64,000 nt of DNA from the NCBI RefSeq assembly GCF_001874525.1, contig NZ_LKAQ01000004.1, positions 2,508,730 through 2,572,729 of the forward strand, read 5' to 3'. Positions within the stretch are counted from its first letter, which is position 1. Each line of letters opens with the position of its first letter. The stretch is from Pseudodesulfovibrio hydrargyri (lineage in GTDB: Bacteria > Desulfobacterota > Desulfovibrionia > Desulfovibrionales > Desulfovibrionaceae). This document shows positions 9,785 to 52,626 of this stretch, piece after piece. The position numbers were made by a program, and so were the translations under genes. Under the pieces are notes generated by a model, which saw only the letters and a list, made by a program, of their open reading frames with translations, was not told where the DNA came from and ran no database searches.

Positions 9785-9866
9785 GCCTCCGGCGGCCAGA
9801 GGAAAAACTTTTGAAAAAGTTTTCCCTCTGGACTCCCTTTCAAAACTTTTTATCGCGCCTTCGGCG
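9785..9866 (+). repeat. Two-hairpin intergenic element, copy 1
   Basis: Begins GCCTCCGGCGGCC, then an inverted repeat (CCAGAGG...CCTCTGG around a CTTTTGAAAAAG core), a linker, AAACTTTTT and a terminal CGCCTTCGGCG hairpin. It points toward copy 2 (9947-10059), 80 bp away, in convergent orientation. Its GCCTCC end, read on the other strand, supplies the ahbA ribosome-binding site. Confidence 0.8.
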
Positions 9867-9946
9867 GATGCGTCCGGTCGCGGTGAATTCTCTTTCAAAA
9901 ACCAGCTTCAGGTCAAGCGATCCGACCTGACATCCCACCCCGTCCT

Positions 9947-10059
9947 CCGCGAAGCGGCACAAAAAGTTTAGGAAAAGGGAGGGATGGGGGTCCGGGGGAA
10001 AGGAGGGAAAGAACCCTTTTCAAAGGATTTTTCCCTCCCTTCCCCCGGCCGCCGGAGGC
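9947..10059 (-). repeat. Two-hairpin intergenic element, copy 2
   Basis: On the minus strand it starts GCCTCCGGCGGCC directly after the ahbD stop codon. A long purine-rich arm (CCGGGGGAAGGGAGGGAAA) pairs, with one mismatch, to TTTCCCTCCTTTCCCCCGG around a CCTTTGAAAAGG core. Then come CCCCCATCCC, AAACTTTTT and the terminal hairpin CCGCTTCGCGG. It may act as a 3'-end structure for ahbD while separating it from ahbA. Confidence 0.85.
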
Positions 10060-11259
10060 TTACGCCTTCGGCTTTTTTTTCGGGGTGTAGGAGCACAGGG
10101 GCTCTTCTTTGAGATAGTGGCCCTTCATGGTCTGGGCCCGGGCGCGGCAGCCGCCGCAGACCTTTTCGTATTCGCAGTGCCCGCACTTGCCGTCGTAGAC
10201 CTCGGGGTTGCGCAGGTTGAGGAACTGCTGGGATTTCTTCCAGATATCCGGGAAGGGGATATCGCGGACATTGCCGCAGTCCAGTTCCAGGTAGCCGCAC
10301 GGCTGCACCTGGCCCCGGTGGGAGATGAAGCAGAACCCGATGCCGCCCAGGCAGCCGCGCGAGACCGCGTCCAGACCGAAGTTCTCGAAGTTGACCGGGA
10401 CGCCTTCCTCCTTGGCCCGCTGGCGCAGGATGCGGTGGTAGTGGGGCGCGCAGGTGGCCTTGAGCTGCATGCTGGTGGTCTTGCGGAAGTCGTAGAACCA
10501 GTTGAGCACGTCCTCGTACTCCTCGGCGGTGATGATCTCGGTGCCGAGTTCCACGGCCCGGCCCGTGGGCACGAGCAGGAAGATGTGCCAGGCGGACGCG
10601 CCGATCCTTTCGCAAAGCTGGAAGATGTCCTTGAACAGGTGCAGGTTGTTCTTGGTCACCGTGGTGTTGATCTGAAACTCGATGCCCACGTCCTTGAGAT
10701 ACTGGATGCCGCGCATGGAGGCGTCGAACGCCCCGAGCTCGCCCCGGAACTCGTCGTGCTGGGCCGCTTCGGGCGCGTCGATGGAGATGGAGCAGCGCTC
10801 GATGCCCGCATCCTTCATCTTCTGGGCGGTCTCCGGGGTGATCAGCGTGCCGTTGGGGGCCATGACGCAGCGCATGCCCTTGGCCTTGGCGTAGGCTATC
10901 AGCTCGTAGACGTCGGCCCGCATCATGGGCTCGCCGCCGGTGAAGATGATGATCGGGGAGCCCACGTCCGGGAAGGTGTCGATGAGCGCCTTGGCCTCCT
11001 CGGTGGACAGTTCGCCCTCGTAGGGCTCGGGGTGCGCCTCGGCCCGGCAGTGCTTGCAGGCCAGGTTGCAGGACCGGGTCACTTCCCAGGCGATGAGCCG
11101 ACAGATGGGCGTGACGCCATCATCGAGAAACCGCTTGGGCGCGTGCTCCGCGCCGGGATGCATCTTGCCGTGGGGGTGCCCGCCGGGGTGTCCGCCTGGA
11201 TGCCCCTCGGGCGGACAGCCGGTCATGGTGCCGGGATGGCCTTTGGGATGTTCACTCAT
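10060..11259 (-). CDS. ahbD: Heme synthase AhbD (radical SAM, Fe-coproporphyrin III decarboxylation)
   Basis: 399 residues. AhbD oxidatively decarboxylates two propionates of iron-coproporphyrin III to give heme b. Visible: a His/Gly/Pro-rich extension (residues 1-37, about nine His), then LIAWEVTRSCNLACKHCRAEA with the radical SAM CxxxCxxC, GGEP for SAM binding, and a C-terminal SPASM-like Cys cluster (RGCLGGIGFC... and CGHCEYEKVCGGCRAR) for extra FeS centres. The start is 1 bp after the hemB stop, so the genes are coupled. AhbD rather than AhbC is chosen from the RLIAWEVTRSCN start and the order in the cluster. The His-rich head is unusual. Confidence 0.9.
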   Translation of the reverse strand: MSEHPKGHPGTMTGCPPEGHPGGHPGGHPHGKMHPGAEHAPKRFLDDGVTPICRLIAWEVTRSCNLACKHCRAEAHPEPYEGELSTEEAKALIDTFPDVGSPIIIFTGGEPMMRADVYELIAYAKAKGMRCVMAPNGTLITPETAQKMKDAGIERCSISIDAPEAAQHDEFRGELGAFDASMRGIQYLKDVGIEFQINTTVTKNNLHLFKDIFQLCERIGASAWHIFLLVPTGRAVELGTEIITAEEYEDVLNWFYDFRKTTSMQLKATCAPHYHRILRQRAKEEGVPVNFENFGLDAVSRGCLGGIGFCFISHRGQVQPCGYLELDCGNVRDIPFPDIWKKSQQFLNLRNPEVYDGKCGHCEYEKVCGGCRARAQTMKGHYLKEEPLCSYTPKKKPKA

Positions 11260-11260
11260 A

Positions 11261-12241
11261 TTATTTCAATACCTTGAGTACGTCTTCGGTGAAGTAGGAC
11301 AGGATCAGGTCCGCGCCCGCGCGCTTGAAGCCGACCAGGGACTCCATGACGATGGACTGCTCGTCGACCCAGCCGTTCAGTGCGGCGGCCTTGATCAGGG
11401 CGTATTCCCCGCTGACCTGGTAGACGGCCACCGGGGTGTCGAAATTGTCGCGGACCAGCCGGACGATGTCCAGGTAGGGCTGGCCGGGCTTGACCATGAG
11501 CATGTCCGCGCCTTCCTCCAGGTCGGCGGCGGCCTCGCGCATGGCCTCGCGCACGTTGGGCGGGTCCATCTGGTAGGTCTTGCGGTCGCCGAACTTGGGC
11601 GCCCCTTCGGCGGCGTCGCGGAACGGGCCGTAGAAGGACGAGGCGTACTTGACCGCGTAGGACATGATCGGGACGTTGATGAAGCCCGCTTCGTCCAGGG
11701 CGGCGCGGATGGCGGCCACGCGGCCGTCCATCATGTCGGACGGGGCGATGATGTCGGCCCCGGCCTTGGCTTGGGACACGGCGGTCCTGGCCAGCAGGTT
11801 CAAGGTCGGGTCGTTCTGGACGTACTCGTTTTTGACCACCCCGCAGTGGCCGTGGGAGGTGTACTCGCACAGGCAGGTGTCGGCCAGGATGATCAGTTCG
11901 GGCCAGCGGGCCTTGAGCATGCGCGTGGCCTTCTGGATGATGCCGTTGTCGTCGTATGCCCCGGAACCCATCTCGTCCTTGGTCTTGGGAATGCCGAAGA
12001 GCATCAGGGCCTTGAGCCCGTTGCCCACGGCCTCGGCCACCTTGATCTCCAGCTGCTTGAGGGAGAGCTGGTACTGGCCGGGCATGGACGGGATTTCCTT
12101 CTTGAAATCCTCGTCGTCGGTGTCGATGACGAAATAGAGCATGACCAGGTCGTTGGCCGTGACCTGGTTTTCCCGTACCAGTTCGCGCATGGCCGGGGAG
12201 GTCCGCAGTCTGCGTCCGCGATAGAAATCCGTGGGTATCAT
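11261..12241 (-). CDS. hemB: Delta-aminolevulinic acid dehydratase (porphobilinogen synthase)
   Basis: 326 residues from ATG at 12241 ([19 protein letters not shown]), preceded by GGAG. It condenses two 5-aminolevulinate molecules to porphobilinogen, the first common tetrapyrrole step, which here feeds siroheme and then heme. Signatures: N-terminal [16 protein letters not shown]; the metal-site segment [17 protein letters not shown] with three Cys, indicating a zinc-type enzyme; [17 protein letters not shown] with an active-site Lys; and [13 protein letters not shown] with the Schiff-base Lys. Directly followed by ahbD. Separated from upstream ahbC by a terminator. Confidence 0.97.
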
Positions 12242-12358
12242 GTATCCGCTCCAGGAAAGAGATTCAGTTTGACTACTACTATACCTGTCCGCGCCCATCC
12301 CGCAAGTTGGTGCAGCAATTCGCATCCGAAGCCGGGAGCGTCGTGGAACGTTGTGAAA

Positions 12359-12398
12359 AAGGCCGGGACCTCTCCCGGAAAGGGGAGGTCCCGGCCTT
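12359..12398 (-). terminator. Intrinsic terminator after ahbC
   Basis: A 12-bp perfect stem (GGCCGGGACCTC/GAGGTCCCGGCC) with a 12-base loop is followed on the minus strand by TTTTTC. It suggests that ahbC and hemB-ahbD are at least partly separate transcripts. Confidence 0.85.
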
Positions 12399-12412
12399 GC
12401 GGATCGCTTTGC

Positions 12413-13606
12413 TTACAGCTTCTCGCCGGTGATTTCTTCGTCGGTGAGGTAGCAGGCGGGGTCCTGGGCCCAGAAGTCGCCGTAGTAGGCCTCGGCGCGG
12501 GCGCGGAAGTTGCCGCCGCAGATGTTCAGGAAGCGGCAGCCGGCGCAGCGGCCGCCCACATGGGGGCGCTTGTCCTTGAGCTTGTGCAGGAGCTCGATGT
12601 TCTCATCGGTCCAGATCTCGGAGAAGGGGCGTTCCAGGACGTTGCCGAAGGTGTGGTGGCGCATGAACTGGTCGGCGTGGACCTGGCCGTCCCAGGAGAT
12701 ACAGCCGATGCCGCGTCCGGAGGAGTTGCCCTCGTTCCACTTGAGCAGTTCAAGCACTTCCTTGGCCCGTTCGGGGTCTTCCTTGAGCAGGCGGTAGTAG
12801 ACCAGGGGGCCGTCGGCGTGGTTGTCCACGGTCAGGACCTCCTTGGGCAGCCCCTTGTCGAACAGCGCCCGGGTGCGGTCCATGATCAGGTTGACCACGT
12901 CGCGGGTCTCCTGGTGGTTCAAATCCTCGTTGATCAACTCGGAACCCCGGCCGGAGTAGACCAGGTGGTAGAAACAGATGCGCGGGATGTCCAACTGCTC
13001 GATGAGGTCGAACAGGTGGGGGATCTCCACGGCGTTGCGCTTGTTGATGGTGAAGCGCAGGCCAACCTTGAGGCCTTCGGCCTTGCAGTTCTCGATGCCC
13101 TTGAGGGCCTGCTTGTAGGCGCCCTTGACGCCGCGGAACTTGTCGTGGACCTCCTCGTTGCCGTCGATGGAGATGCCCACGTAGGACAGGCCGACTTCCT
13201 TGAGCTCGCGGGCCTTGGACTTGGTGATCAGGGTGCCGTTGGTGGAGATGACCGCGCGCATGCCCTTTTCCCTGGCGTACTTGGCCAGTTCCACCAGGTC
13301 CTCGCGGACCAGGGGCTCGCCGCCGGAGAAGAGCATGACCGGCGCGCCGAACTGGGCCAGGTCGTCGATCATCTCCTTGGCCTTTTCGGTGGAGATGGGG
13401 TCTTCGTGGGAACTCGGGTCCACGGCGTGGGCGTAACAGTGCACGCACTTGAGGTTGCACCGCTGGGTCATGTTCCAGACCACCACGGGCTTCTTGTCTT
13501 TTGAAAATTGGAGCAGATGGGACGGCAGCTGCCCGGATTCGCGGTTGTAACGCAAGGCGTCGGAAGCTTCGACGGCGCCGCAGTACAATTTGGAAATGCC
13601 TATCAT
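12413..13606 (-). CDS. ahbC: 12,18-didecarboxysiroheme deacetylase AhbC (radical SAM)
   Basis: 397 residues from ATG at 13606 (MIGISKLYCGAVEASDALRY), with AGAGG upstream; the frame is open upstream but not protein-like. AhbC removes the two acetate side chains of didecarboxysiroheme, giving iron-coproporphyrin III, the substrate of AhbD. The ISKLYCG...DALRY head and WNMTQRCNLKCVHCYAHA (radical SAM cluster Cys), FSGGEP, and the C-terminal CAGCRFLNICGGNFRARAE SPASM Cys set fit AhbC/NirJ-type enzymes. It heads the heme gene group, followed by a terminator and hemB. Together with hemB, ahbD and ahbA this covers most of the siroheme-to-heme route. Confidence 0.92.
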   Translation of the reverse strand: MIGISKLYCGAVEASDALRYNRESGQLPSHLLQFSKDKKPVVVWNMTQRCNLKCVHCYAHAVDPSSHEDPISTEKAKEMIDDLAQFGAPVMLFSGGEPLVREDLVELAKYAREKGMRAVISTNGTLITKSKARELKEVGLSYVGISIDGNEEVHDKFRGVKGAYKQALKGIENCKAEGLKVGLRFTINKRNAVEIPHLFDLIEQLDIPRICFYHLVYSGRGSELINEDLNHQETRDVVNLIMDRTRALFDKGLPKEVLTVDNHADGPLVYYRLLKEDPERAKEVLELLKWNEGNSSGRGIGCISWDGQVHADQFMRHHTFGNVLERPFSEIWTDENIELLHKLKDKRPHVGGRCAGCRFLNICGGNFRARAEAYYGDFWAQDPACYLTDEEITGEKL

Positions 13607-13748
13607 TAATATACCTCTCAGGTGAAATGAAGGTCTCTCAGGTAGCACACAAACTGCGCTGTGTAAAAGACGAAAAAAGAGGCCAGGAATGGCCCCTTGT
13701 CGCGTCCCTGTCCGCAAAGGTAAGAACTATTCTCGGAAAGTCAAGAAA

Positions 13749-14948
13749 TCATTGCAGGGCCTGATCCGCCAGCCTGATTTCAACCCTGCGGTTTCGCTGC
13801 TGATCCGCCGCAGTGGTCCCTGCGGTCAGGGGACGGGACTTGCCGAAACCCACGGCCTCGATGAGGTCCGGGTTGATGCGCCACTTGTCCACCAGGTACG
13901 CCTTGACCGCGTCGGCCCGCTTCTTGGACAGGTCGAGGTTGTACCGGGCGTCGCCCGAGGCGTCGGTGTGCCCGCCGACCACGATGCTCTTTCCCTTGAA
14001 TTCTGGCGAGTTCAGGGTCTCGCCCAGGGCGTCGAGAACGGCGTGGGACTCGGGCTTGATGGTCGCCTTGTCGAAGTCGAACTGGATGTCCAGATCCACG
14101 CCCGAGATGCCGGGCCGGGGCGTCGCGTCCTCGCCGGTCCGTGCGGCCTCGTCTTCCGCGTCGCCCCGCGCGGGCTGCCCGGCGGCCGGGCCCGAGGACA
14201 CGGCCGGGGCCGGGGAGGTCTCGGGCGGGAGGTCCGCGCCCTGCGCGCCGTCGGTGGGACCGGCCATGAGCCCGCTTTTCACCGCCTCCGGGGTGGAGGC
14301 GTAAGGGAACCGCGAATCCGGGTCGGGCAGCCAGGACTTGAGCGGCACGGCCATGTCCCTGGCGATGGCGCGGATCATCTGGTTGAACGGGCTGTGCGAC
14401 ATGCGCGTCTCGTGGACCACCACCACGAAGTCTTCCGGGTCGCGCTGCTCAATGCGCGAAGACTGGATCATGGTCCAGAGCAGGGTGCCGCTGCCCGCGG
14501 CGTAGACGTCCACCTGAATGGTCACGGCCGAGTCGTCCAGGGTGGTGCCGTCGTAGAAATAGGGCACCTTGCCGATGACCAGCAGGTCCGCGCCGCGCCG
14601 TCTGGCCGATTCCAGGGCCGAGGAATACCCCTGGTAGCCGTAGCCCGGGGCCAGCTCCATGGTCGAGAACAGCCGCTCCTCGGTCCAGACGTTGAAGAAT
14701 ATCTGGGTGAACGAGGCGGACAGGGCCGCGTGGTCCGGGCTTTCCTGCTGGATGATGAACGGGTGGAAATAGGCGGTCAGGGGCGTGTACTGCCTGCCCT
14801 TGGGGTGGACCGAGACCTGGAGCGCCGATTTCCTGACGGGCGCGTCCGTGTATATCCTGGTCTGGTCGGTCAGGGAGAGGTCCACGTGCGAACACGCGGC
14901 TATGGTCAGCAACAGGCTGAAAAGAAGAGCTTTTTTCATATCATTCAC
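13749..14948 (-). CDS. OmpA-family outer membrane lipoprotein
   Basis: 399 residues. Lipoprotein signal peptide with lipobox LTIAAC (Cys about residue 19). Residues about 30-240 are an unrecognised periplasmic domain; a Pro/Ala/Glu-rich linker follows (about 245-270). The C-terminal 120 residues are an OmpA peptidoglycan-binding domain: IQFDFDKATIKPESHAVLD, VVGGHTDASGDARYN, LSKKRADAVKAYLV and NRRVEIRL. It probably tethers the outer membrane to peptidoglycan. The start is uncertain: ATG at 14948 or 14939, neither with a good ribosome site. Neighbours are also envelope proteins on the same strand. Confidence 0.88.
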   Translation of the reverse strand: MNDMKKALLFSLLLTIAACSHVDLSLTDQTRIYTDAPVRKSALQVSVHPKGRQYTPLTAYFHPFIIQQESPDHAALSASFTQIFFNVWTEERLFSTMELAPGYGYQGYSSALESARRRGADLLVIGKVPYFYDGTTLDDSAVTIQVDVYAAGSGTLLWTMIQSSRIEQRDPEDFVVVVHETRMSHSPFNQMIRAIARDMAVPLKSWLPDPDSRFPYASTPEAVKSGLMAGPTDGAQGADLPPETSPAPAVSSGPAAGQPARGDAEDEAARTGEDATPRPGISGVDLDIQFDFDKATIKPESHAVLDALGETLNSPEFKGKSIVVGGHTDASGDARYNLDLSKKRADAVKAYLVDKWRINPDLIEAVGFGKSRPLTAGTTAADQQRNRRVEIRLADQALQ

Positions 14949-15042
14949 CGGCTGATGGTTGATGCCGCCCGGAACTGCCCGCCGGGTTTGCGACGGGGCC
15001 GGAATCCTTGGCGGGATCAGAGCAATATGTATGCCGGTGAAT

Positions 15043-15378
15043 CTACTGGAGGGTCTGGGTGGGCGAGGGCGCGGACTCGATGGATTCCAGGAGCTGCTCG
15101 CGCGACTCCTGGAGCCCCTGGCGCAGGAGCAGCTTCTTGCCGGTGGAGAGCTTCCGGAACTCGGGCCGGTCGGCCAGTTCCGAAAGCCTCTCCATCTCGA
15201 CGATGACGCTGCGGATGAGCTTGTGGATGTCCCGCTCCCTCGGGTTGAGCTGGGAGGCGAGCAGGGCCAGGTCGCGGATCTCCATGGCCATCCGCTTGAA
15301 GGCGCGCGGATCGGTCTGGCTCGCCAGCTTGCGGTGGGCCTTGTAGGTCTCGATTCTGCGTTTGAACCATCCGATCAT
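15043..15378 (-). CDS. Small charged protein of unknown function
   Basis: 111 residues, Arg/Lys/Glu-rich and predicted helical throughout, without membrane segments. It starts MIGWFKRRIETYKAHRKL after a GAGGAC site and lies 9 bp downstream of the Yip1-like gene, so it is probably co-expressed. No motif recognised; a cytoplasmic accessory to the neighbouring membrane protein is only a guess. Confidence 0.65.
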   Translation of the reverse strand: MIGWFKRRIETYKAHRKLASQTDPRAFKRMAMEIRDLALLASQLNPRERDIHKLIRSVIVEMERLSELADRPEFRKLSTGKKLLLRQGLQESREQLLESIESAPSPTQTLQ

Positions 15379-15387
15379 GGGCGTCCT

Positions 15388-16614
15388 CTAAACGGTCGGC
15401 ACCTGGCCCCGCATCATGAGCACGGCCGCGATCATGCCCAGCAGGAAGGGAATCAGGAGCACGGCCACGATCTTGGTGTAACCTACCTTGTGGATGTATT
15501 TCAGGCCGATGGCGGTCAGAATCAGGGTCCAGACGGCGTTGATCAACATCCAGCTCGCCATGAAGTTCGCCGTGAACATGGGGATTATCCCGATCATCAT
15601 CGGCGCGTAGGCGTAGGCCACGGCCCGGAACGACCCTTCGAATCCCTTGTTGCCCGATTTGAGCATGCTGAGGATGAGGTGGTAGAAACCGGAGATGGCG
15701 AACAGGGACAGGGCCACGACGGCCGGGGTGAGCAGAAGCTCGAAGAGTCCGTTGACGGCGTCGTAGGGCACGGCCTCAAGCCCATGTGCCGTCACGTTCA
15801 TGCCCGGAGTCAGTCCGGCCACGCCCCAGGCGTACTGGACCACGGTCTGGATCATGGAGACCAGGATGGCGAAGGTCAGGGGCTTGGACAGCCCGTTGCC
15901 CACGGGCATGACCGAGAAGAACAGGCGCGGCGAGAACAGGACCAGCTTCAGGGTCAGGAACAGGCCGTGGAAGAAGCCGTAGCGGTCCAGCTGCTCGAAG
16001 GGCGGCGGCACCTGCATGGGGGCCACCTCGTCCTCGTCGCCGTCCGCGAACTCGACCTGCATGGGGTCCGGGAAATCCTCGTTGAATTCGCCGGTCCAGC
16101 CGGGCACGGGCTGCTGATCCTGATAGGCGTCATGCCGCCGGTCGCCGGCATTGTCGTAATGGTCGTCGTAGGGCGCGTTCCCCGGCTCGTCATAGGCGTC
16201 GTCGTAAGGCTCGTCCCGGGGCGCACGGGGCTTTTCGGGCGGGGTCATGGTGTGCAGCCGCTGCCACAGCCCGTCGCCGTTGTCCTCTTCCTCGGGCAGG
16301 CCCGGAAAGGCCCTGTCCTCGGGCTCCTCGCCTTTCTCGGGACGGGCCGGGGCGGGGGGGCGCAGTCCGCTTCCTATTACGGGCGGGGTTCTTGGCTTGA
16401 TCCTGGGCTCGGCGGTCCTGCGCGCCGCCGGTTCGGTCTTGTGCTCGGGCCGGGCGGACGGTTCGGGCTCCTCGATGAGGAACTCCTCCTCGGGCAGGTC
16501 GCGGAACTTGAATTTGGTCTGGCATTTGGGACAGGTCGCCACCTGGGAGCGGGCGGGTATCTTGCTCTCGTCCACCTCGCGGGTGAACCTGCATTCGGGA
16601 CATATTATCTGCAT
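15388..16614 (-). CDS. Zinc-ribbon plus Yip1-domain membrane protein
   Basis: 408 residues. The N-terminus is an MJ0042-type zinc ribbon with C5, C8, C28 and C31 (CPEC...CPKC). Residues about 45-200 are a Pro/Asp/Glu/Tyr-rich, probably disordered linker. The C-terminal 200 residues hold about five transmembrane helices in the layout of a Yip1 domain (FFHGLFLTLKLVLFSPRLFF entry helix, then ALSLFAISGFYHLILSML). Good AAGGAAAG site. The family is common in deltaproteobacteria, with unknown function. It is the first gene of a pair with the one at 15043. Confidence 0.8.
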   Translation of the reverse strand: MQIICPECRFTREVDESKIPARSQVATCPKCQTKFKFRDLPEEEFLIEEPEPSARPEHKTEPAARRTAEPRIKPRTPPVIGSGLRPPAPARPEKGEEPEDRAFPGLPEEEDNGDGLWQRLHTMTPPEKPRAPRDEPYDDAYDEPGNAPYDDHYDNAGDRRHDAYQDQQPVPGWTGEFNEDFPDPMQVEFADGDEDEVAPMQVPPPFEQLDRYGFFHGLFLTLKLVLFSPRLFFSVMPVGNGLSKPLTFAILVSMIQTVVQYAWGVAGLTPGMNVTAHGLEAVPYDAVNGLFELLLTPAVVALSLFAISGFYHLILSMLKSGNKGFEGSFRAVAYAYAPMMIGIIPMFTANFMASWMLINAVWTLILTAIGLKYIHKVGYTKIVAVLLIPFLLGMIAAVLMMRGQVPTV

Positions 16615-16705
16615 TGTCTTTCCTTGAAGGACATGAATATCGATCGCTGATCGGTCGTATACATTTTGTAGGTCAGAATCAAGCGATCTGCAACGTACTG
16701 CACGA

Positions 16706-17917
16706 TCAGACCGGGTTTTCCTCCAGCAGGAGCATGGCCAGGGAGCCCACCAGGAAGGTAGCCTCGGACAGCAGGGCGCGCGGAATGGTCGGGTAGTCGT
16801 CGCTGAGCACGTGGCTGATGCCGCCGCCCGAGGCCGCGTCGAACCGCTTGAGCTTGGCGGCCAGGGTCTCGGGGGACTTGGTCAGCCTGCTGTAGTGCAG
16901 GATGGGCGCGTCCAGGACCAGGGCCGTGCGTCCCTTAACCCCGGTCAGCCGCTCGTGCACGGGCCGGGTGAAGCGCACGCCGGGCTCGTTGCGGAACAGG
17001 CGTAACTGCAGATCGGGCCACAGCCCGTAGCCCGCCTTGCAGCGGGTCTCGTCCGGATACAGGGTCATGCGCGGGAACCAGCAGGCCGTGAGCCTTTTCA
17101 CCAGCAGGCAGGCGGGAAGCAGTCCCCAGACGTCCTCGCTGAATCGTTCGTCGCCGTCCAGGTACAGGACCCAGTCTCCGGCGCATTCGTCGAGCATGCG
17201 GTTGCGCTGGGACGCGAAGTCGTCCAGCGGACGGGCCAATTGGCGGACGGGCGCGGCGCAGGTGAAATCGCGGCCGGGCGTTTCGTCGGCGTCCCAGAGG
17301 ACCACCACCTCGCGGACCCAGTCCGGGAATTGGGCGAAGAATTCGTCGAGCCCGGGCTCGTCCGGGGCCAGGATCACGCCCACGGACAGGTCCGGGGCCT
17401 GGACGCCCACATGGCTCAGGTACGAGCTGTTGATGGCCTGGTGGGGTCTGGCGTTCATGAACAGCCGCTGGAGGTTGCGGTAGGCCGCCCGCGTATCCTC
17501 GGGCAGGGACGGGTTCAGGGCCAGGGCCGTTTTGTCCGGACCGATTCCGCTCATGGCCAGGATGTAGAGCTGGGCCCAGGGCGAGGTGTCGGCCAGGACC
17601 AGGAGCCGCGAATCAGGAGCGTTCCAGGCAGGGTTGGCGGCCAGAAAGGCGCGGGCCACGGCCGGGTCGGTCTCGCAGACCACCAGCCGGGCGGCCTCGG
17701 GCAATCCGGCGGCCAGGGCCAGGGCGTGCCCGCCGTTGCCCAGGCCGAACAGGACCAGGGTTTCGCCCCTGCTCTTGTCCAGGATGCGCAGGGAGCGTTC
17801 GGCAAAGGCGGCCGCGTCGGCCGGATCTGTTTTGCCTTGGGCCGCGGCGTCCGGGCCGTCGCGGAAACCGAATTCCAGGACGGCGGCGGTGTATGCTTCT
17901 ATCAATCCGGTGTTCAT
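16706..17917 (-). CDS. Family 2 glycosyltransferase with N-terminal Rossmann-like domain
   Basis: 403 residues, no signal peptide. Residues about 48-165 look like a nucleotide- or SAM-binding Rossmann unit (LVLFGLGNGGHALALAAGLPE, LVVCETDP), reminiscent of motility-accessory/flagellin-modification proteins. From about 175 it resembles the GT2 branch of LPS-core-type glucosyltransferases: VVVLWDADET, DDFASQRNRMLDECAGDWVLYLDGDERF with a DxD-like motif, then LQLRLFRNEPGVRF and PVHERL. Its ATG overlaps the preceding glycosyltransferase stop by 4 bp (ATGA), so the two are coupled. With fliS-fliD-flagellin upstream, flagellin glycosylation is the likeliest role; LPS synthesis is the alternative. Confidence 0.75.
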   Translation of the reverse strand: MNTGLIEAYTAAVLEFGFRDGPDAAAQGKTDPADAAAFAERSLRILDKSRGETLVLFGLGNGGHALALAAGLPEAARLVVCETDPAVARAFLAANPAWNAPDSRLLVLADTSPWAQLYILAMSGIGPDKTALALNPSLPEDTRAAYRNLQRLFMNARPHQAINSSYLSHVGVQAPDLSVGVILAPDEPGLDEFFAQFPDWVREVVVLWDADETPGRDFTCAAPVRQLARPLDDFASQRNRMLDECAGDWVLYLDGDERFSEDVWGLLPACLLVKRLTACWFPRMTLYPDETRCKAGYGLWPDLQLRLFRNEPGVRFTRPVHERLTGVKGRTALVLDAPILHYSRLTKSPETLAAKLKRFDAASGGGISHVLSDDYPTIPRALLSEATFLVGSLAMLLLEENPV

Positions 17918-18987: not shown

Positions 18988-19071
18988 GGCGGAAAGGTGA
19001 CACATGCCGCATGTGTTGTAAATGACTGCCTATGATTCAAGTGAAACAGTTCCTTGCCCGCGAAATGAAAA

Positions 19072-19091
19072 CCGGCCCCTTGCGGGGCCGG
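19072..19091 (-). terminator. Intrinsic terminator after fliS
   Basis: An 8-bp stem (CCGGCCCC/GGGGCCGG) with a TTGC loop, followed on the minus strand by TTTTCATTT. It separates the flagellar genes from the glycosyltransferase pair. Confidence 0.85.
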
Positions 19092-19095
19092 AGGA

Positions 19096-29938: not shown

Positions 29939-30033
29939 GCCTCCGGCGGCCGGGGCGCTGCCCCGGACCCCGCCAGGGAACCTTTTGGAAAAGGTTCCCT
30001 GGACCCTCCAAAACTTTTTGTGTGCCTTCGGCA
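29939..30033 (+). repeat. Two-hairpin intergenic element, copy 3
   Basis: Begins GCCTCCGGCGGCC, with a small CCGGGGC/GCCCCGG hairpin, then a 14-bp perfect inverted repeat (CCAGGGAACCTTTT/AAAAGGTTCCCTGG), AAACTTTTT and terminal hairpin TGCCTTCGGCA. It faces copy 4 (30129-30246) across 95 bp. Confidence 0.85.
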
Positions 30034-30128
30034 GAGCCGTGCGAGGGTGACTTGGCGTACTTATTTCTCGAGGTATTGATTCCCCACATCGTCACGAATG
30101 AGGCACGTCTTTTCGCAAACCACCGCAC

Positions 30129-30246
30129 GCGCGGATGCGCAAACAAAAAGTTTAGGAAGGGAAAGGGGATGGGGGGTCCGGGGGAAGGGGAAAGGGAAAG
30201 CCCTTTTCAAAGGGTTTCCCTTTCCCTTCCCCCGGCCGCCGGAGGC
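30129..30246 (-). repeat. Two-hairpin intergenic element, copy 4
   Basis: Minus strand: starts GCCTCCGGCGGCC 14 bp after the stop codon of the phosphatase gene (30261). A purine-rich arm (CCGGGGGAAGGGAAAGGGAAA) pairs nearly perfectly with its pyrimidine partner around CCCTTTGAAAAGGG, followed by CCCCCCATCCCC, AAACTTTTT and the terminal hairpin GCGCATCCGCGC. Confidence 0.85.
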
Positions 30247-39432: not shown

Positions 39433-39437
39433 TATTT

Positions 39438-43736: not shown

Positions 43737-43874
43737 TGCGGACTCCTGGAAGTTTCTCTCAATGTCGCGACAACGGATTGATATTGTTTGCGAAAGAGGG
43801 TATTTTATGAAGAAGCTCGTAGAAAAAGAACGTTATTTCAAGTGGTTGGAATAAAGTTGAAGAGCTGGCAACAC

Positions 43875-43904
43875 TTGACATTCTCGCGTTGGTCTTCCTA
43901 TAGG
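43875..43904 (+). promoter_or_regulatory. Sigma-70 promoter of the EF-G paralogue
   Basis: TTGACA (43875-43880), 18 bases, TATAGG (43899-43904): a full -35 match and 4/6 -10. It sits 97 bp before the ATG at 44001. The region from 43737 to 44000 carries no other gene I can support. Confidence 0.65.
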
Positions 43905-44000
43905 ACTAAACCCGTAAAAAACCAAGTGCTGTGCTTTTCGCGGGGCGAAAGCGGCTCCGCGACTCCGTTAAGGACAACCAGAAACGATGTGGAGTGAAGT

Positions 44001-46061: not shown

Positions 46062-46088
46062 GGGGTTCATTACGATTCGAAGTCGCGA

Positions 46089-46119
46089 GGGCGGCGGGGC
46101 GACCCGCCGCCCTTTTTTT
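46089..46119 (+). terminator. Intrinsic terminator after the EF-G gene
   Basis: A 10-bp stem (GGGCGGCGGG/CCCGCCGCCC) with a GCGA loop, followed by TTTTTTT. Confidence 0.95.
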
Positions 46120-46324
46120 GCGCCTGGCCATCGGAGGGGGGACGCACGTGATTTGGTGTAAAATCCTGATTGAGTGCGGGAAGGTGTCCTGGTTTGCCTG
46201 TCGTGCTATAGATCGCTTCGAGGGAAATCCATAGACGATTTTTATTTTTGATGTGGTCCGTCCGGCTGGTTCCGGGCATGGGCGCCTTTGCGCCGCTGAA
46301 CCTTTTACCCCTGGAAGTGCCCGT

Positions 46325-47209
46325 ATGGAAGTCATGACAGCGATTCGGGAACAGGGGGATGTGTTGCGTCATGCTTCGCCCATCCCCTTTCATCCGTGCC
46401 TGAACGACGAGGCCCACGGCCAGGTGGCCAGAATCCACCTGCCCGTCGCCCCGCGCTGCAACCTGGCCTGCGCCTATTGCGAACGCATCCTGTCCGACGA
46501 CCCGGACCTGCCCGGACCGGGCACGGCCTCGGTGGTCATGACGCCCGGCGCCGCCGCGCTCAGGGCCCTGGCCTTTCTGAATGAATACGGCGGCGACTCC
46601 ATCGTGGGCATCGCCGGGCCGGGCGACCCGTTGGCCAATGAAGAGACCTTCGAATGCCTGGAACGAGTCAGGCGGCAGGCCCCCGGGGCCGCCTTGTGCC
46701 TGTGCACCAATGGCCTGGCCCTGCCGCGAAGCATGGATCGGCTGGTCGCGGTCGGGGTCAACACCCTGACGGTCACCGTGAACGGCGTGACCCCGGAGAC
46801 CGTGGCCCAGGTGCAACCGCGCATCCTTGAGGGCGGTATCTGGATCAAGGAAACGGAAGCGGCGCGGATCCTCATCGACCGCCAGCGCGAGGGCATTGCC
46901 CGGGCCGCCGAGGCGGGCATGGTGGTCAAGGTCAACATGGTCGTCATTCCGGAAATCAACATGCACGAGGCCGAGGCAGTGTCCGGCATGGCCGCGCGGC
47001 TCGGGGCCAAGGTATTCAACCCCATGCCCCTCATTCCACGCAACGGGCTGAAACATTTTTGCCGACCCACGGGCCGGGACATGGCCGAGGTTAGGCGTCG
47101 ATGCGGCAAGGAACTCTACGTTTTCACCAAATGCAAACAGTGTCGGGCGGACGCTGCGGGAATCCCCGGTAAGGAGCATTACGGATGTCGGATGATAAAA
47201 AACGGTTGA
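46325..47209 (+). CDS. NifB-like radical SAM protein
   Basis: 294 residues from ATG at 46325, GGAAG upstream; a second ATG three codons on is possible. Shows the NifB N-terminal arrangement: HPCLNDEAHGQVARIHLPVAPRCNLACAYCERIL with cluster ligands C45, C49, C52, then IAGPGDPLANEETF in the GGEP-equivalent region and CTNGLALP. The C-terminus has extra Cys (FTKCKQCRADAAG...GCRM) that could hold another FeS centre. NifB builds a nitrogenase precursor cluster; with no nif genes here, this is a NifB-family relative of unknown product. It overlaps the next gene by 25 bp, so it is co-translated with it. Confidence 0.8.
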   Translation: MEVMTAIREQGDVLRHASPIPFHPCLNDEAHGQVARIHLPVAPRCNLACAYCERILSDDPDLPGPGTASVVMTPGAAALRALAFLNEYGGDSIVGIAGPGDPLANEETFECLERVRRQAPGAALCLCTNGLALPRSMDRLVAVGVNTLTVTVNGVTPETVAQVQPRILEGGIWIKETEAARILIDRQREGIARAAEAGMVVKVNMVVIPEINMHEAEAVSGMAARLGAKVFNPMPLIPRNGLKHFCRPTGRDMAEVRRRCGKELYVFTKCKQCRADAAGIPGKEHYGCRMIKNG

Positions 47210-48060
47210 GCCGACGTAAATTCATGGTCGGCGGCGGGGCGGCGTTGACCACCGCCTTCGTGCCCATGGGCGCGCACACGGCTGCGGCCGCGTCGCAGGG
47301 AACCTTTGCCGGCGGGAGTCTGCAGGTCTGGTCCTGCGGCGGGCTGGCCGAGGCGTTCATGCCCGCCAACGCCAAGTTCGAACAGGCCATGGGCGGGTCC
47401 ATCAGCTATACGGGGGCCTTTGCGGGAGCCCTGGGCAAGTCCCTGCTCGGCGGCAGCGCCAGGACCGAAGTCTTTGCTCCGCGCGTGCTCAAACTGGCCC
47501 AGGCCCTGAAAGGGCAGGGCAAAATGCTCTCCTTCCAGCCCCTGTGCTTCACCGAATATGTTCTGGTCACGCCCAAGGGCAACCCGGCCGGAATCGCTTC
47601 CATCAAGGACCTGAAGAAGGACGGCGTCAAAACCCTGTGCTCGCCGGACTCTTCGCCCCCCGGCGGGGCGGCCGCCATGGGCGTGCTCAAGAAGAGCGGG
47701 GTGGTCAAGGAGGCCACGGCCAACTCCATCTATCTGGGCTCCTGCGTCCAGCACGACGTGGCCGACGTGGCCGCGGGCAAGGCGGACGCGGCCGTGGTCG
47801 AACGCCGCATCACCCGCCTGCCGCGCTACCGCGAGGCCTTCGAGGTCATTCCCATCCCGGAGGAGTATTTCCCGGCCCCGCCCATCCCGTTCACCATCGG
47901 GATGATGAAGTGGGCCGAAAACCGGGACATGGCCATGGCGTTCATCGATTTCATCTGCGGGGAAGAGGGGCAGGCCTGCTTCCGGGAGGCCGGATTCATT
48001 CCCGCGCTGTCCGACGAGGGACGGCGCCTTGCCGAAAAGTACGGGGTGAAGGATGTCTAG
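47185..48060 (+). CDS. Tat-exported molybdate-type (ModA-like) substrate-binding protein
   Basis: 291 residues. Twin-arginine signal at residues 9-14 (SRRKFM) with a hydrophobic segment and cleavage region around AAAASQG, so it is exported folded. Mature protein has a ModA/SBP_bac_11-like layout: LQVWSCGGLAEAFMPANAKFEQAMG, then GKSLLGGSARTEVFAPRVLKLAQALKGQG, FTEYVLVTPKGNPAGI, DAAVVERRITRLPRYREAFEVIPIP and FTIGMMKWAENRDMAMAFIDFI. Use of the Tat route is unusual for binding proteins and suggests a cofactor or metal is bound before export. No ModB or ModC gene adjoins. It overlaps the next gene by 8 bp. Confidence 0.8.
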   Translation: MSDDKKRLSRRKFMVGGGAALTTAFVPMGAHTAAAASQGTFAGGSLQVWSCGGLAEAFMPANAKFEQAMGGSISYTGAFAGALGKSLLGGSARTEVFAPRVLKLAQALKGQGKMLSFQPLCFTEYVLVTPKGNPAGIASIKDLKKDGVKTLCSPDSSPPGGAAAMGVLKKSGVVKEATANSIYLGSCVQHDVADVAAGKADAAVVERRITRLPRYREAFEVIPIPEEYFPAPPIPFTIGMMKWAENRDMAMAFIDFICGEEGQACFREAGFIPALSDEGRRLAEKYGVKDV

Positions 48061-48826
48061 TACCACCGCAATCAGAGGCGCCCGCTACTGGATCCGCCGT
48101 CTCATTCAGGCCGTGGCCCTGTTCACCATCGCGGAGTTCTCCTACTACGGGATATTCCGCTGTCCCTTTGCCGTGCCTTACGTCAGCTGCGCCAACTGTC
48201 CGGTTGTCCAGTGTCCGGGCAAACAACTCTGGCTGATCGTGCTCCTGGGCATATTGGCCTCGGGGCTGCTCTTCGGCAGGGCCTTTTGCGGTTACGCCTG
48301 TCCGGCAGGCATGCTCAACGAGCTGTTCAGCAAGGTGGCGGTGTTGCGCGGCAAGGTGCGCGGCAAGTTCGCGGCCGTGGCCGGGTACGGCAAGTACGTG
48401 GCCGCCGCGATCTGCGCGGTCCTGTTCTTCGGCATGCACAACCCGCGCTGGGCCGTGCCCATCCGCACCGGCGAGTTCGTCAATTCGACCGTGCTGACCT
48501 TTGAGCACGCCTTCCCCCTGTGGCTGATACGGACCTCGATAGTGGTCGGGACGTTGCTGCTCGGGCTGCTCATTCCCTACTTCTTCTGCCGCTTCCTGTG
48601 CCCCACGGGCGGCGTGCTGGAAATCCTTGGCCGGTTCTCGCCGTTCAAGTACCGCGTGGCCGACTCGTGCACCGATTGCGGCAAGTGTGACCGGACCTGC
48701 GGGCTGGAAACCCGGCCCGAGCGCGACAACTGCACCAACTGCGGTGAATGCCGGAGTGTGTGCCCGGTGGACGCCATCCATCTCGGCACCGCGGCCAAGG
48801 GGCGCGGTCCCCAATCGACCGCCTAG
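48053..48826 (+). CDS. NapH-like membrane polyferredoxin
   Basis: 257 residues with about four transmembrane helices. Cys motifs: CANCPVVQCPG after the first helix, FCGYACPAGM, FCRFLCPTGG, and a C-terminal pair of 4Fe-4S sites CTDCGKCDRTC and CTNCGECRSVCPV. This is the arrangement of NapH/RdxA/CcoG-type membrane iron-sulfur proteins that pass electrons across the inner membrane. Third gene of an overlapping trio with the NifB-like and Tat-exported binding protein, so it likely supplies electrons to, or receives them from, the periplasmic component. Followed by a terminator. Confidence 0.85.
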   Translation: MSSTTAIRGARYWIRRLIQAVALFTIAEFSYYGIFRCPFAVPYVSCANCPVVQCPGKQLWLIVLLGILASGLLFGRAFCGYACPAGMLNELFSKVAVLRGKVRGKFAAVAGYGKYVAAAICAVLFFGMHNPRWAVPIRTGEFVNSTVLTFEHAFPLWLIRTSIVVGTLLLGLLIPYFFCRFLCPTGGVLEILGRFSPFKYRVADSCTDCGKCDRTCGLETRPERDNCTNCGECRSVCPVDAIHLGTAAKGRGPQSTA

Positions 48827-48863
48827 CGATTCCGGCCCGGGTACCGTCCGGCATGCGTGAAGC

Positions 48864-48892
48864 AAAGAGGGGGATTTTCCCCCTCTTTTTTT
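48864..48892 (+). terminator. Intrinsic terminator after the NifB-like trio
   Basis: The stem AGAGGGGG/CCCCCTCT with a short loop, followed by TTTTTTTG. Confidence 0.9.
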
Positions 48893-49045
48893 GTCCGCAA
48901 CGGCTCGTTTTGCTCCGAAAATAAAGGTCCGGAATCGAAAAAACATGTTTTGACGCCGAATTATAACGCATACCGCCTGGTTGCGCTCTTGTTTCGCGCC
49001 GCGATATGGTTTACTCAGACTGGAGCCACTCAAACAAGGAAACCT

Positions 49046-49768
49046 ATGCTCCGAAGACTGTTTTTCACCATCCTGCTTGTTCCCGTAACCATCTGGTATT
49101 CTCTGAAGATGCTCAAGGTGGACCCCGAGACGTCCACACCCGAGGAATACGACCGCTGGGGGTTGGCCTGGGGGGCGGCCGCCGTGAAGCTGTCCGGCGT
49201 CAAGATCGAGGCGGACATGGGCGACGTGGACCCGAAAGGGCACTACGTGTTCATCGGCAACCACCAGTCCAACCTGGACATCCCCGTGCTCTTCTACCTG
49301 CTCAAGGGCAACCGCATCCGCTTCGTGGCCAAGAAGTCCCTGTTCGAGATTCCCCTCTACGGCAAGGCGCTCGGCCATGCCGGGCACATCTGCATCGACA
49401 GGGGGAACCGCCGCGCGGCCATGCAATCCCTGAACGACGCCGTGGAGACCGCCAAGGCGGGCATATCGCCGCTCATTTTCCCGGAGGGCACGCGCAACCT
49501 CGACCTGAGCAAGCTGATGGACTTCAAGATCGGGGCCATGATCCTGGCCCTCAAGGCCGGTCTGCCCGTGGTTCCGTTCGTCATGACCAACACCGGGCGG
49601 GTCATGGGCAAGGGCGACTTCTTCATCGACAATCGGCCCGTGGTCCGGTTCAAGGCGCTGCCGGTCATCGACCCGGCGCAATACACCCTCAAGGAGCGTG
49701 AGCGGTTCAAGGATGACCTGTACGACATGATGAACGCGGCGTACCAGGAACTGCTGGCAAAGGGGTAG
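49046..49768 (+). CDS. plsC: 1-acyl-sn-glycerol-3-phosphate acyltransferase
   Basis: 240 residues from ATG at 49046, CAAGGAAAC upstream; upstream in-frame sequence overlaps a terminator and is not coding. Makes phosphatidate from lysophosphatidate at the inner membrane, the substrate of CdsA. N-terminal membrane helix (1-20), then NHQSNLD (HX4D, H73-D78), the RNRR/GNRR region, FPEGTRN and PVVPFVMTN, all in PlsC order. It ends 4 bp before the RNase J start. Confidence 0.92.
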   Translation: MLRRLFFTILLVPVTIWYSLKMLKVDPETSTPEEYDRWGLAWGAAAVKLSGVKIEADMGDVDPKGHYVFIGNHQSNLDIPVLFYLLKGNRIRFVAKKSLFEIPLYGKALGHAGHICIDRGNRRAAMQSLNDAVETAKAGISPLIFPEGTRNLDLSKLMDFKIGAMILALKAGLPVVPFVMTNTGRVMGKGDFFIDNRPVVRFKALPVIDPAQYTLKERERFKDDLYDMMNAAYQELLAKG

Positions 49769-49772
49769 GCGC

Positions 49773-51428
<1,656 letters not shown>

Positions 51429-51506
51429 CGTCTGGACTTCGGCCCGATGTTGGGCTAGATATTTCAATAAACCGAAAGAGATGCTTTTTCTGAGAGGATA
51501 CCTGAC

Positions 51507-51974
51507 ATGAAACGAATTCTGCTTGCAGCGGCCATGACGGCCATGATTTCCCTGCTCGCCGCCTGCGGCGCGCAGAAGAACGACCTCGACACGGGATGGG
51601 CCATGGTCAAGCAGGGCAACTGCGGCCAGGCTCAGGTCTACCTGGACAACACCATCGCCCAGCCCGATAGCGCGGCGGACCTGGCCTACGCCTACTATCT
51701 CAAGGGAGAGTGCGCGGAAAAGGCCTCCGACTTCGAGGCCGCTTATGAAAACTTCTACGCGGCCAAAGTCGTGGCCTGCTACGTGGTCGCCAACCAGACC
51801 CACGTCAACCTGGATACCTATGCCCGCAGCGACTACTGCGAGCGGATACTCCCGGCCAAGCTCGAGGCCCTGTCGGCCAAGATCGAGGTGCGGGCGATTG
51901 AGCGGATAGAGGGCAAGGTCAACGACATCCTGCGGGCCGACTACCTCAAGCGATTTGAAAAGAGCATGAACTAG
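51507..51974 (+). CDS. Lipoprotein of unknown function
   Basis: 155 residues. Lipoprotein signal peptide with lipobox LLAAC (about residue 20). The mature part is helical, with alternating Ala/Tyr helices that resemble one or two TPR-like hairpins (DLAYAYYLKGECAEKASDFEAAYENFYAAKVV). Good GAGAGG site. A terminator follows, so it may be a single gene. Family not recognised. Confidence 0.7.
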   Translation: MKRILLAAAMTAMISLLAACGAQKNDLDTGWAMVKQGNCGQAQVYLDNTIAQPDSAADLAYAYYLKGECAEKASDFEAAYENFYAAKVVACYVVANQTHVNLDTYARSDYCERILPAKLEALSAKIEVRAIERIEGKVNDILRADYLKRFEKSMN

Positions 51975-51980
51975 CATACC

Positions 51981-52009
51981 GAAACGCCCCGCCCTGCGGG
52001 GCGTTTTTC
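51981..52009 (+). terminator. Intrinsic terminator after the lipoprotein gene
   Basis: The stem AACGCCCCGC/GCGGGGCGTT with a short loop, followed by TTTCG, 10 bp past the stop. Confidence 0.88.
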
Positions 52010-52040
52010 GTGGCGCATCCTGCAAACCGGGGAGGGCGAC

Positions 52041-52508
52041 ATGGCGTTGGCGGATTACACGGCGAGCATCGACCGCCTGCAAAGGGCGCTGGGCAGGGTC
52101 TACGCGGACGAACCGTGGCTGCTGAACATGCCGGGCCGGTCCATGGCCTGCAAGATCGACCACTACTACTACCTCGCGGTCATGCCCGGGTTCGTCGAGA
52201 CCCTGGCCCGCCTGGGCGGCATGTTCCCCAAACAGGTCCTCGAAGCCCTGGTCAGGACCGGCAACCTCATCACCAAAGCCCCGGAACGCGACCCGCTCCT
52301 GCCCCTGACCGTCTCCTGGGGCGCCCGCTCCGTCACCCTGAGCGGCGCGTTCGTCGACGCCGACTTCATCGACCGCGCCGTCAAGACCTACGGCGGGTTC
52401 GGTGCCATCCTCAACGTCTCGGACCTCAAAATCTCCGCCGCCGACCGCGAACGCATCGAGGCACTCTTCGAGGACAAGACCCCACCCCAGGGCTTGGCGT
52501 ATTTTTAG
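52041..52508 (+). CDS. Small protein of unknown function
   Basis: 155 residues, soluble, with GGAGGGCGAC before the ATG. N-terminal DYTASIDRLQRALGRVYADEPWLLNMPGRSMACKIDHYYYLAV and a strand-rich C-terminal half; no recognised motif. A repeat element begins directly after its stop codon. I cannot assign a family. Confidence 0.6.
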   Translation: MALADYTASIDRLQRALGRVYADEPWLLNMPGRSMACKIDHYYYLAVMPGFVETLARLGGMFPKQVLEALVRTGNLITKAPERDPLLPLTVSWGARSVTLSGAFVDADFIDRAVKTYGGFGAILNVSDLKISAADRERIEALFEDKTPPQGLAYF

Positions 52509-52509
52509 C

Positions 52510-52626
52510 GCCTCCGGCGGCCGGGGGAAGGGGGAAAGGGAACCCTTTGAAAAGGGCTTCCCTTTCCCCCTTCCCCCGGACCCCCATCCCCCTTTCCCTC
52601 CTAAACTTTTTATTGCCGCTTCGCGG
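52510..52626 (+). repeat. Two-hairpin intergenic element, copy 5
   Basis: Starts GCCTCCGGCGGCC one base after the stop codon at 52508. Arms at 52521-52542 and 52558-52579 are a perfect 22-bp inverted repeat of purine-only/pyrimidine-only type around CCCTTTGAAAAGGG. Then CCCCCATCCCCC, AAACTTTTT and the terminal hairpin CCGCTTCGCGG. It is the only copy in the window not paired with another. Confidence 0.9.

What the first reader, a model, noticed from the sequence alone, without database searches (positions are those of the whole stretch)
9785..52626. Five-copy intergenic element whose hairpin stems covary
Copies at 9785-9866, 9947-10059, 29939-30033, 30129-30246 and 52510-52626 share the order GCCTCCGGCGGCC, long inverted repeat around CTTTTGAAAAG, AAACTTTTT, small terminal hairpin. 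Both stems change sequence from copy to copy yet stay paired: the long arms are CCAGAGG, CCAGGGAACC or a 22-bp purine tract, and the terminal hairpins are CGCCTTCGGCG, TGCCTTCGGCA, CCGCTTCGCGG or GCGCATCCGCGC. Compensatory change points to selection on structure in RNA or single-stranded DNA. Three copies start at, or within about 14 bp of, a stop codon. Function (3'-end structure, mobile miniature element, transposase substrate) is open.
Basis: seen in the sequence. Interest (0 to 1): 0.78.

Follow-up and report, generated by a model that had tools for sequence, protein, structure and literature searches.

The report
Triple-strand DNA repeats between genes
This bacterium carries over a hundred copies of a short repeat between its genes, in which a hairpin and a following tail change in step from copy to copy, as expected if evolution preserves a three-stranded DNA fold that spreads through the genome.

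Summary
The five copies are real. They belong to a large intergenic family: 159 end-motif matches in this genome, 110 modules analysed, abundant only in part of one bacterial family. Two of the five copies lie on the minus strand; the five form two inverted pairs of unlike modules (A, short stem; B, long purine/pyrimidine stem) plus one single.

It is the parallel complement (mirror image) of the purine arm, so three strands change together: G-C.C becomes A-T.T. That is the signature of an intrastrand triplex, and mirror sequence cannot arise by simple copying. Third-strand letters fit a purine-motif DNA triplex on the complementary strand better than a pyrimidine triplex (96% against 90%), and codirectional gaps show no transcript-strand bias.

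Whole A-B composites are present or absent at one orthologous gap, so they behave like non-autonomous mobile units. No mobilising enzyme was identified.

Closest known: E. coli BoxC/PIT triplex repeats, which also pair A with B. Triplex formation is untested here. Verdict: a new variant of that kind, with covariation evidence that I did not find reported for BoxC.

The parts
9785..10059 (.). inverted A|B composite no. 1, GCCTCC ends outward, between two minus-strand genes
   Evidence: filled in some species and empty in others at the orthologous gap
9785..9866 (+). A module: end motif 9785-9797, 5' arm 9797-9811, loop 9812-9815, 3' arm 9816-9830, mirror tail 9831-9842, AAACTTTTT 9843-9851, terminal hairpin CGCCTTCGGCG 9856-9866
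9947..10059 (-). B module: end motif at 10059, 5' arm 10047-10023, loop, 3' arm 10018-9993, mirror tail 9992-9970, AAACTTTTT 9969-9961, terminal hairpin CCGCTTCGCGG 9957-9947
   Evidence: directly follows the TAA of gene 10060-11259(-)
29939..30246 (.). inverted A|B composite no. 2, between convergent genes
29939..30033 (+). A module with an extra small hairpin (GGGGCGCTGCCCC) before the main stem 29973-30002; tail 30003-30010; AAACTTTTT 30011-30019; terminal hairpin 30023-30033. This copy was among those dropped from the mirror test by my stem/tail splitter
30129..30246 (-). B module; AAACTTTTT at 30153-30145; terminal hairpin GCGCATCCGCGC 30140-30129
52510..52626 (+). B module without inverted partner: 5' arm 52522-52547, 3' arm 52552-52578, mirror tail 52579-52602, AAACTTTTT 52603-52611, terminal hairpin 52616-52626
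   Evidence: orthologous copies in L188 and, altered, in L187
52688..52863 (+). second structured repeat, same-strand neighbour of some partnerless B modules
   Evidence: 12 of 35 partnerless B modules (and 1 of 15 partnerless A modules) carry it on the tail side, anchor 169-236 nt from the module start; 62-pair consensus fold with 19 double-sided pairs in 11 copies

Best explanation
A non-autonomous intergenic repeat family, probably of Desulfovibrionaceae, whose module is selected to fold as an intrastrand DNA triplex. Each module is a purine arm, a pyrimidine arm, and a tail that mirrors the purine arm. On the complementary strand this reads third strand-purine-pyrimidine (class I, purine motif). 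SHOWN in sequence: palindrome, mirror tail, three-way covariation, A/B inverted pairs, absence from predicted genes and near-absence from divergent (promoter) gaps, presence/absence of whole composites at an orthologous gap. INFERRED: that the three-stranded fold forms; that it forms in DNA, when replication or supercoiling exposes a strand; and that an unidentified trans-acting enzyme and/or conversion between copies recognises or propagates it. Inverted A/B composites are the likely unit of insertion, and singles the likely remnants or one-ended arrivals.
For: Mirror test: the tail matches the parallel complement of its own arm better than permuted arms (64 long copies: 14.39 against a permuted mean of 11.84, maximum of 5000 permutations 12.62; parallel beats antiparallel in 63 of 64, ties in 1; 27 short copies: 6.30 against 5.10, maximum 5.78; parallel better in 15, tied in 11, worse in 1). 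Triads on 49 aligned B modules: the tail is the complement of the arm in 802 of 899 cells; in columns 24-32 91.6% parallel against 71% for the best antiparallel register; GC.C and AT.T alternate together (25/12, 37/9 and 32/13 at columns 26, 29, 30). At the stem top, arm TTT/TTTT/TCTT goes with tail AAA/AAAA/AGAA (54/13/6 of 91, with 6 of TTTT/AAA; Fisher p = 1e-5 for C against G). The mirror relation recurs in other genomes (18 modules: 11.00 against 8.08, maximum of 2000 permutations 9.78; parallel better in 15, tied in 2, worse in 1). Letters fit the purine motif in 1107 of 1153 and the pyrimidine motif in 1039 of 1153 aligned positions (computed). Pairs: 22 of 24 are AB (12.2 expected), none within 450 bp with ends inward. 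Context: 0 of 110 inside predicted genes, 49 in convergent and 1 in divergent gaps. Site A: 12 filled gaps of 168-298 bp (10 of them 261-298) against 8 empty gaps of 4-13 bp.
Against: No direct structural evidence: triplex formation was not tested, and for the related E. coli motif in vivo DMS footprinting did not support stable formation (PMC4666352 passage). Copies are related and the permutations do not model that; at site A the hairpin was replaced as a block in G217, so independent co-changes are fewer than the counts. The antiparallel score to the own arm also exceeds its permutations, though by far less (9.73 against 9.13, long copies). Not every change is followed: at column 31, 8 of 12 G-C cells keep tail T, and at column 32 the tail is T throughout; TCAAG arms keep AATCTCC tails. 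The junction C-run of the arm is met by C, not G, in the tail. In five modules of genome G058 the arms do not vary, so they add no covariation. No mobilising enzyme was identified.
Confidence: 0.6

Rival explanations
1. RNA-level element: a 3'-end structure of transcripts (pyrimidine-motif RNA triplex or plain hairpin) that ends, stabilises or insulates mRNAs.
For: The GCCTCC end faces the end of the neighbouring gene in 77 of 107 modules with a called neighbour on that side, median 12 nt from its stop; the stem is predicted in RNA too.
Against: In codirectional gaps orientation is 26 sense to 29 antisense. The tail A opposite arm A (68 aligned positions) is a mismatch in a pyrimidine-motif RNA triplex. 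The sites at 29939 and 52510 have separate terminator-like hairpins beside them (not counted for the rest). E. coli PIT repeats showed no promoter or terminator activity (as reported in PMC4666352, introduction).
Confidence: 0.17
2. REP/REPIN-like element mobilised by a RAYT (Y1 tyrosine transposase), with the tail irrelevant to structure.
For: Inverted pairs of palindromic modules, extragenic location, patchy copy number in the genus, filled and empty sites. Some copy-rich genomes of other genera do have Y1_Tnp matches, for example G025 and G097.
Against: The own genome shows only one Y1_Tnp match, a fragment in a 78-aa frame. Of 13 same-genus genomes with at least 10 anchors 5 have a Y1_Tnp match, against 12 of the 23 with fewer; the association was not tested outside the genus. 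It does not explain the mirror tail.
Confidence: 0.1
3. MITE of a DDE transposase with GCCTCCGGCGGCC as terminal inverted repeat.
For: Outward ends on a composite (24 pairs, 20 of them spanning 251-332 bp); whole-unit insertion.
Against: No target-site duplication seen by eye at site A; the one end pair examined about 1.7 kb apart (L042) encloses a phosphoserine-phosphatase-like gene, not a transposase (name recalled from the sequence, no family search made); many single modules exist.
Confidence: 0.08
4. Mirror tail and arm correlate only because subfamilies were copied as blocks; no present selection on a third strand.
For: Block replacement at site A in G217 with a similar spacer.
Against: Copying can yield reverse complements or direct repeats but not mirror sequence, so each subfamily still had to acquire a matching tail; the 64 long copies hold 61 distinct arm/loop/tail combinations.
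Confidence: 0.05

Closest known systems
E. coli BoxC / PIT / TM-ECO intrastrand triplex repeat (Holder et al. 2015, PMC4666352)
   Same: Intergenic, 23 copies in MG1655; hairpin plus adjoining mirror third strand; G/C-rich; the five inverted pairs always join a type A with a type B; by my reading of Table 1 a T sits over an A in the third strand (GGGTGAGGG over GGGAGAGGG), as in the complement of our CATCC; copy number varies between close relatives; no transposase found nearby.
   Different: BoxC is class II (Y-R-third), 34-37 nt in the rows seen and with an 'extraordinary degree of identity'; ours is third-R-Y (class I; class III on the other strand), with up to about 20 triads, an added end clamp, AAACTTTTT and terminal hairpin, and many covarying subfamilies. 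E. coli pairs span about 85-129 bp, ours mostly 251-332 bp. By the coordinates of Table 1 four of the five E. coli pairs have hairpins outward; ours 24 of 24.
REP/BIME/REPIN elements with RAYT
   Same: Extragenic palindromes in inverted pairs, patchy, non-autonomous (features recalled and from abstracts listed).
   Different: Only a Y1 transposase fragment found here; long variable stem and mirror tail; no REP tag noticed, though not counted.
H-DNA forming mirror repeats
   Same: 3' arm plus tail is a pyrimidine mirror repeat.
   Different: Here the mirror repeat shares its middle arm with an inverted repeat, which a single strand can fold alone.

Membership tests
Intrastrand triplex repeats (class of BoxC/PIT) | three adjoining domains: two complementary arms and a mirror third strand | tested here: met
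Intrastrand triplex repeats (class of BoxC/PIT) | triplex shown physically | not testable with these tools
   needs CD, NMR or probing
E. coli BoxC family proper | class II order Y-R-third and the BoxC consensus | tested here: not met
   order is R-Y-Y(third) on the sense strand and third-R-Y on the complement; compared by eye with Table 1
REP/REPIN-RAYT | cognate Y1 transposase in genomes rich in copies | tested here: not met
   8 of 13 copy-rich same-genus genomes have no match; not tested outside the genus
REP/REPIN-RAYT | GTAG or CGTC tag beside the palindrome | not tested
   not counted; none noticed in the aligned copies
MITE | terminal inverted repeats on a unit present or absent at orthologous sites | tested here: met
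   (one orthologous gap)
MITE | target-site duplication and parent transposon | tested here: inconclusive
   no duplication seen by eye at site A; one wide end pair examined only
Known Rfam RNA | match at the gathering score | tested here: not met
   0 matches in the window
Intrinsic terminator | G/C stem directly followed by a T run | tested here: not met
   a tail of 8-32 nt, as split by script, separates the stem from AAACTTTTT

The most novel reading that the evidence does not exclude
A mobile repeat whose heritable, recognised form is a three-stranded DNA fold: the third strand pairs with the purine arm, then crosses the groove near the hairpin top to the other purine strand (arm TTTT/TCTT with tail AAAA/AGAA), and an unknown trans-acting enzyme or replication intermediate copies composites on the basis of that fold.
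Probability: 0.2. Interest if true: 0.87.

Novelty: new variant of a known kind. Interest (0 to 1): 0.64.

Why it matters
Whether intrastrand triplex repeats are selected as triplexes has been open: the E. coli copies are reported as almost identical, and in vivo footprinting did not support stable formation. Here dozens of natural arm/tail variants act as a mutational series. They give comparative evidence for a third strand and a ready panel for probing, and they link triplex repeats to REPIN/MITE-like spread.

Tried and rejected
Rejected: antiparallel pairing of the tail with the 5' arm (lower than parallel in 63 of 64 long copies and 15 of 27 short ones; 71% against 91.6%). RAYT mobilisation as the main account. 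An autonomous element between the ends in L042. Plasmid or phage carriage: no match for window:52510-52626 in plasmids or window:9785-10059 in phages, one query each. Rfam: no match at the gathering score in the window; in the stretches searched with E-values all listed matches were below it, mostly microRNA-like hairpins. Spread beyond the family: of 286 sampled phylum genomes outside it 15 had 1-2 end-motif hits each. Literature: seven searches listed no paper on this family in Desulfovibrio or Pseudodesulfovibrio; the lists show 10-20 rows each, some of many more hits (1,186), and only open-licence papers are held. A first gene caller of mine preferred shadow frames and contradicted the visible stop codons; it was replaced by one trained on GC3, and the counts (for example 15 of 110 inside genes, 67 of 91 antisense) are not used. 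The regex for stem tops picked up the 3' arm and was redone. One search was a script error, rerun.

Rows dropped: of 101 copies 10 lacked a stem of at least 9 bp or a tail of at least 6 nt by my splitter, the window copy at 29939 among them. Alignment A1 used 49 of 64 long copies and A2 21 of 27 short ones, chosen by me. The second-repeat fold used 11 of 12 extracted copies; one of 59 nt was left out. Copies with N in the module body were left out of the mirror test. Only 100 of the 159 end-motif sites were listed, so modules come from those plus BLAST hits. In the tree I labelled L162 and L163 'full' although only one end was found by script, and two short loci were left out. Two MIC098Bin4 rows look like wrongly split modules and were left in the count; STD2_191 and P. 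pelocollis gave no module there. Gaps counted as a state in the mutual information.
Full report
WHAT IS THERE. The five copies are members of a family with 159 matches to GCCKCCGGCGGCCNGGG at up to one mismatch (83 forward, 76 reverse; the reversed control pattern gives 1). From the stretches around listed sites I extracted 110 modules, 69 of type B (long purine arm) and 41 of type A.

ANATOMY OF A MODULE. GCCTCCGGCGGCC end motif; hairpin; tail of 8-32 nt as split by script; AAACTTTTT; small terminal hairpin. A stem of at least 4 bp follows AAACTTTTT in 94 of 110 modules, against 13% of shuffled 24-mers, with several unrelated stems (CCGCTTCGCGG 44, TGCCTTCGGCA 7, CGCCTTCGGCG 4, GCGCAT[C/G/T]CGCGC 8). 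The long stem covaries: in 49 B modules columns 28-31 alternate between G-C and A-U pairs (40:9, 40:9, 35:13, and 12:37) with at most one broken pair each; in 21 A modules 5 of 11 predicted pairs have double-sided changes.

THE THIRD STRAND. The tail is the parallel complement of the 5' arm, for example arm GGGGGAAGGGGAGGAAAAA with tail CCCCCATCCCCTCCTTTT. In 64 long copies the match to the copy's own arm is 14.39, against a permuted mean of 11.84 and a maximum of 12.62 in 5000 permutations. Antiparallel matching to the own arm scores 9.73; that also exceeds its own permuted mean of 9.13 (maximum 9.50), as expected of tract-like sequence, but by far less. Column by column, arm, opposite arm and tail change together: GC.C 25 and AT.T 12 (column 26), 37 and 9 (column 29), 32 and 13 (column 30). 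Mutual information exceeds all 500 shuffles in each of columns 25-31; column 24 only equals its maximum, and the other columns hardly vary or, at 32, do not follow. The relation continues at the stem top: TTT/AAA 54, TTTT/AAAA 13, TCTT/AGAA 6, TTTT/AAA 6, other 12, of 91. In other genomes it holds for 18 modules from MIC098Bin4, OB3, G217 and G225 (11.00 against 8.08, maximum 9.78) and for 29 distinct modules in the orthologous loci (8.97 against 6.58, maximum 7.48; parallel better in 18, tied in 9, worse in 2). In genome G058 five modules also have mirror tails but their arms do not vary.

WHY A TRIPLEX, AND WHY PROBABLY DNA. Polymerases copy antiparallel strands, so direct repeats and reverse complements can arise by copying but mirror images cannot. 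A tail that mirrors each variant arm therefore points to selection (inference). A pyrimidine third strand parallel to a purine arm is the pyrimidine motif (class III in the scheme of Holder et al., PMC4666352, first part of the introduction read). On the complementary strand the same letters form the purine motif (class I), which accepts G.GC, A.AT and T.AT. The conserved CATCC puts an A opposite an arm A (68 of 397 arm-A positions against 11 of 755 arm-G positions; most at one conserved site): a mismatch in the first motif, a T.AT triad in the second. Canonical positions rise from 1039 to 1107 of 1153. These alignments favour matches by construction, so only the difference is informative. The same paper states that purine-motif triplexes cannot form in RNA. 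Modules in codirectional gaps show no strand preference (26 and 29). Both points favour DNA; neither proves it. One feature is unexplained: the arm's C-run near the top is met by C in the tail.

PAIRS. Of 24 outward-facing pairs within 450 bp, 22 join an A to a B module (12.2 expected by shuffling, maximum 20 in 10000), and no pair faces inward. With a looser test 34 of 69 B modules have an inverted partner end; of the 35 without, 12 have a second structured repeat on the tail side. That repeat has 35 anchors in the genome at up to one mismatch and its own covarying long hairpin.

CONTEXT. None of 110 modules lies inside a predicted gene (my own ORF caller, which gives 79% coding in these stretches). 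49 lie between convergent genes and 1 between divergent genes, although the two kinds of gap are equally common (5 and 5 among the 61 genes called in the window, counted). The end motif lies a median 12 nt from the stop codon of a sense neighbour (77 modules).

MOBILITY AND TURNOVER. At the gap between gene 10060-11259(-) and the next gene, orthologues were found in 36 of 36 same-genus genomes and 30 loci were fetched. In 12 both ends of the composite were found by script (gap 168-298 bp, 10 of them 261-298), in 4 only the right end, in 8 the genes are 4-13 nt apart, in 5 the gap is longer without an end recognised by script (one, L161, shows a hairpin of the family by eye), and in 1 (L175) the script found no next gene, although the listing shows one overlapping the stop. 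A tree of this one gene (28 rows) puts ten filled species in one clade (97/95). Within it the hairpin type differs: CCAGAGGG-type in G000, CTTAAGAACC-type in G217 with a spacer that looks alike by eye, others in G139, G164 and G091. Hairpin and tail were thus replaced together, most simply by conversion from another copy. At the 52510 site, of the six loci compared closely G000 and G233 have a B module, G225 an altered one, G217 an A module, G213 a decayed remnant and G171 a pair.

DISTRIBUTION. The exact end motif occurs in 114 of 247 family genomes, with 0 to 84 copies within the genus. In a phylum-wide sample 20 of 297 genomes have it: 5 of 11 in the family, and 15 of 286 outside it with only 1-2 hits each.

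WHO MOVES IT. Unknown. The own genome shows one Y1 transposase fragment. In the genus, copy-rich genomes such as G217 (73) and G225 (63) have no Y1_Tnp match; in other genera some copy-rich genomes do. Other transposase families were not searched for.

COMPARISON WITH WHAT IS KNOWN. E. coli BoxC/PIT/TM-ECO is the nearest kind: 23 copies in MG1655, intergenic, purine-motif triplex in vitro, five inverted pairs each joining a type A with a type B (PMC4666352; abstract, part of the introduction, sections on MG1655 and on instability, and passages seen). Our element is not BoxC: the order of domains and the sequence differ. It works like it, with a longer third strand and with sequence variety that BoxC is reported to lack. 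I found no earlier description in the searches listed under Tried and rejected.

VERDICT. A real, large, structured and mobile-like repeat family. The three-way covariation is strong sequence evidence that a third strand is conserved. The triplex itself, its strand and its function remain inferred.

Noticed in passing
window 52688-52863 (+); also L027, L028, L029, L037, L044, L045, L067, L074, L081, L087: A second structured repeat (GGAGCGATTCGGGTGC...GCACCCGACAGCGGCTC...CGCTATCGGAAGCCGC, about 176-194 nt) with 35 anchors in the genome; 11 copies give a 62-pair consensus fold with 19 double-sided pairs; no Rfam match at the gathering score in the window. It lies tail-side of 12 of 35 partnerless B modules.
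   Followed up: partly
own genome C4:72301-72450 (L009): Fragment of a Y1 (RAYT-like) transposase in a 78-aa frame.
   Followed up: partly
L043 695, L049 443, L065 801, L032 1454: Related end motifs (GCCTCCGGCGGGC, GCCTCCGGCGGCCCC) with other hairpins and a further repeat containing GGTGTCCCGAAGGG...CGCGCCGG, suggesting a wider mosaic of modules (seen).
   Followed up: no
L126-L155 (genomes G065, G080, G187): In other genera the same end motif precedes different short hairpins (for example GGGGGAAATGATTTCCCCC or GGGGGGGATCATCCCCCC) without the AAACTTTTT tail: perhaps sister families sharing the clamp (by eye).
   Followed up: no
L025 minus strand near 1378: An A module whose loop carries an insertion of about 50 nt, itself foldable, while arms and tail stay matched.
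   Followed up: no
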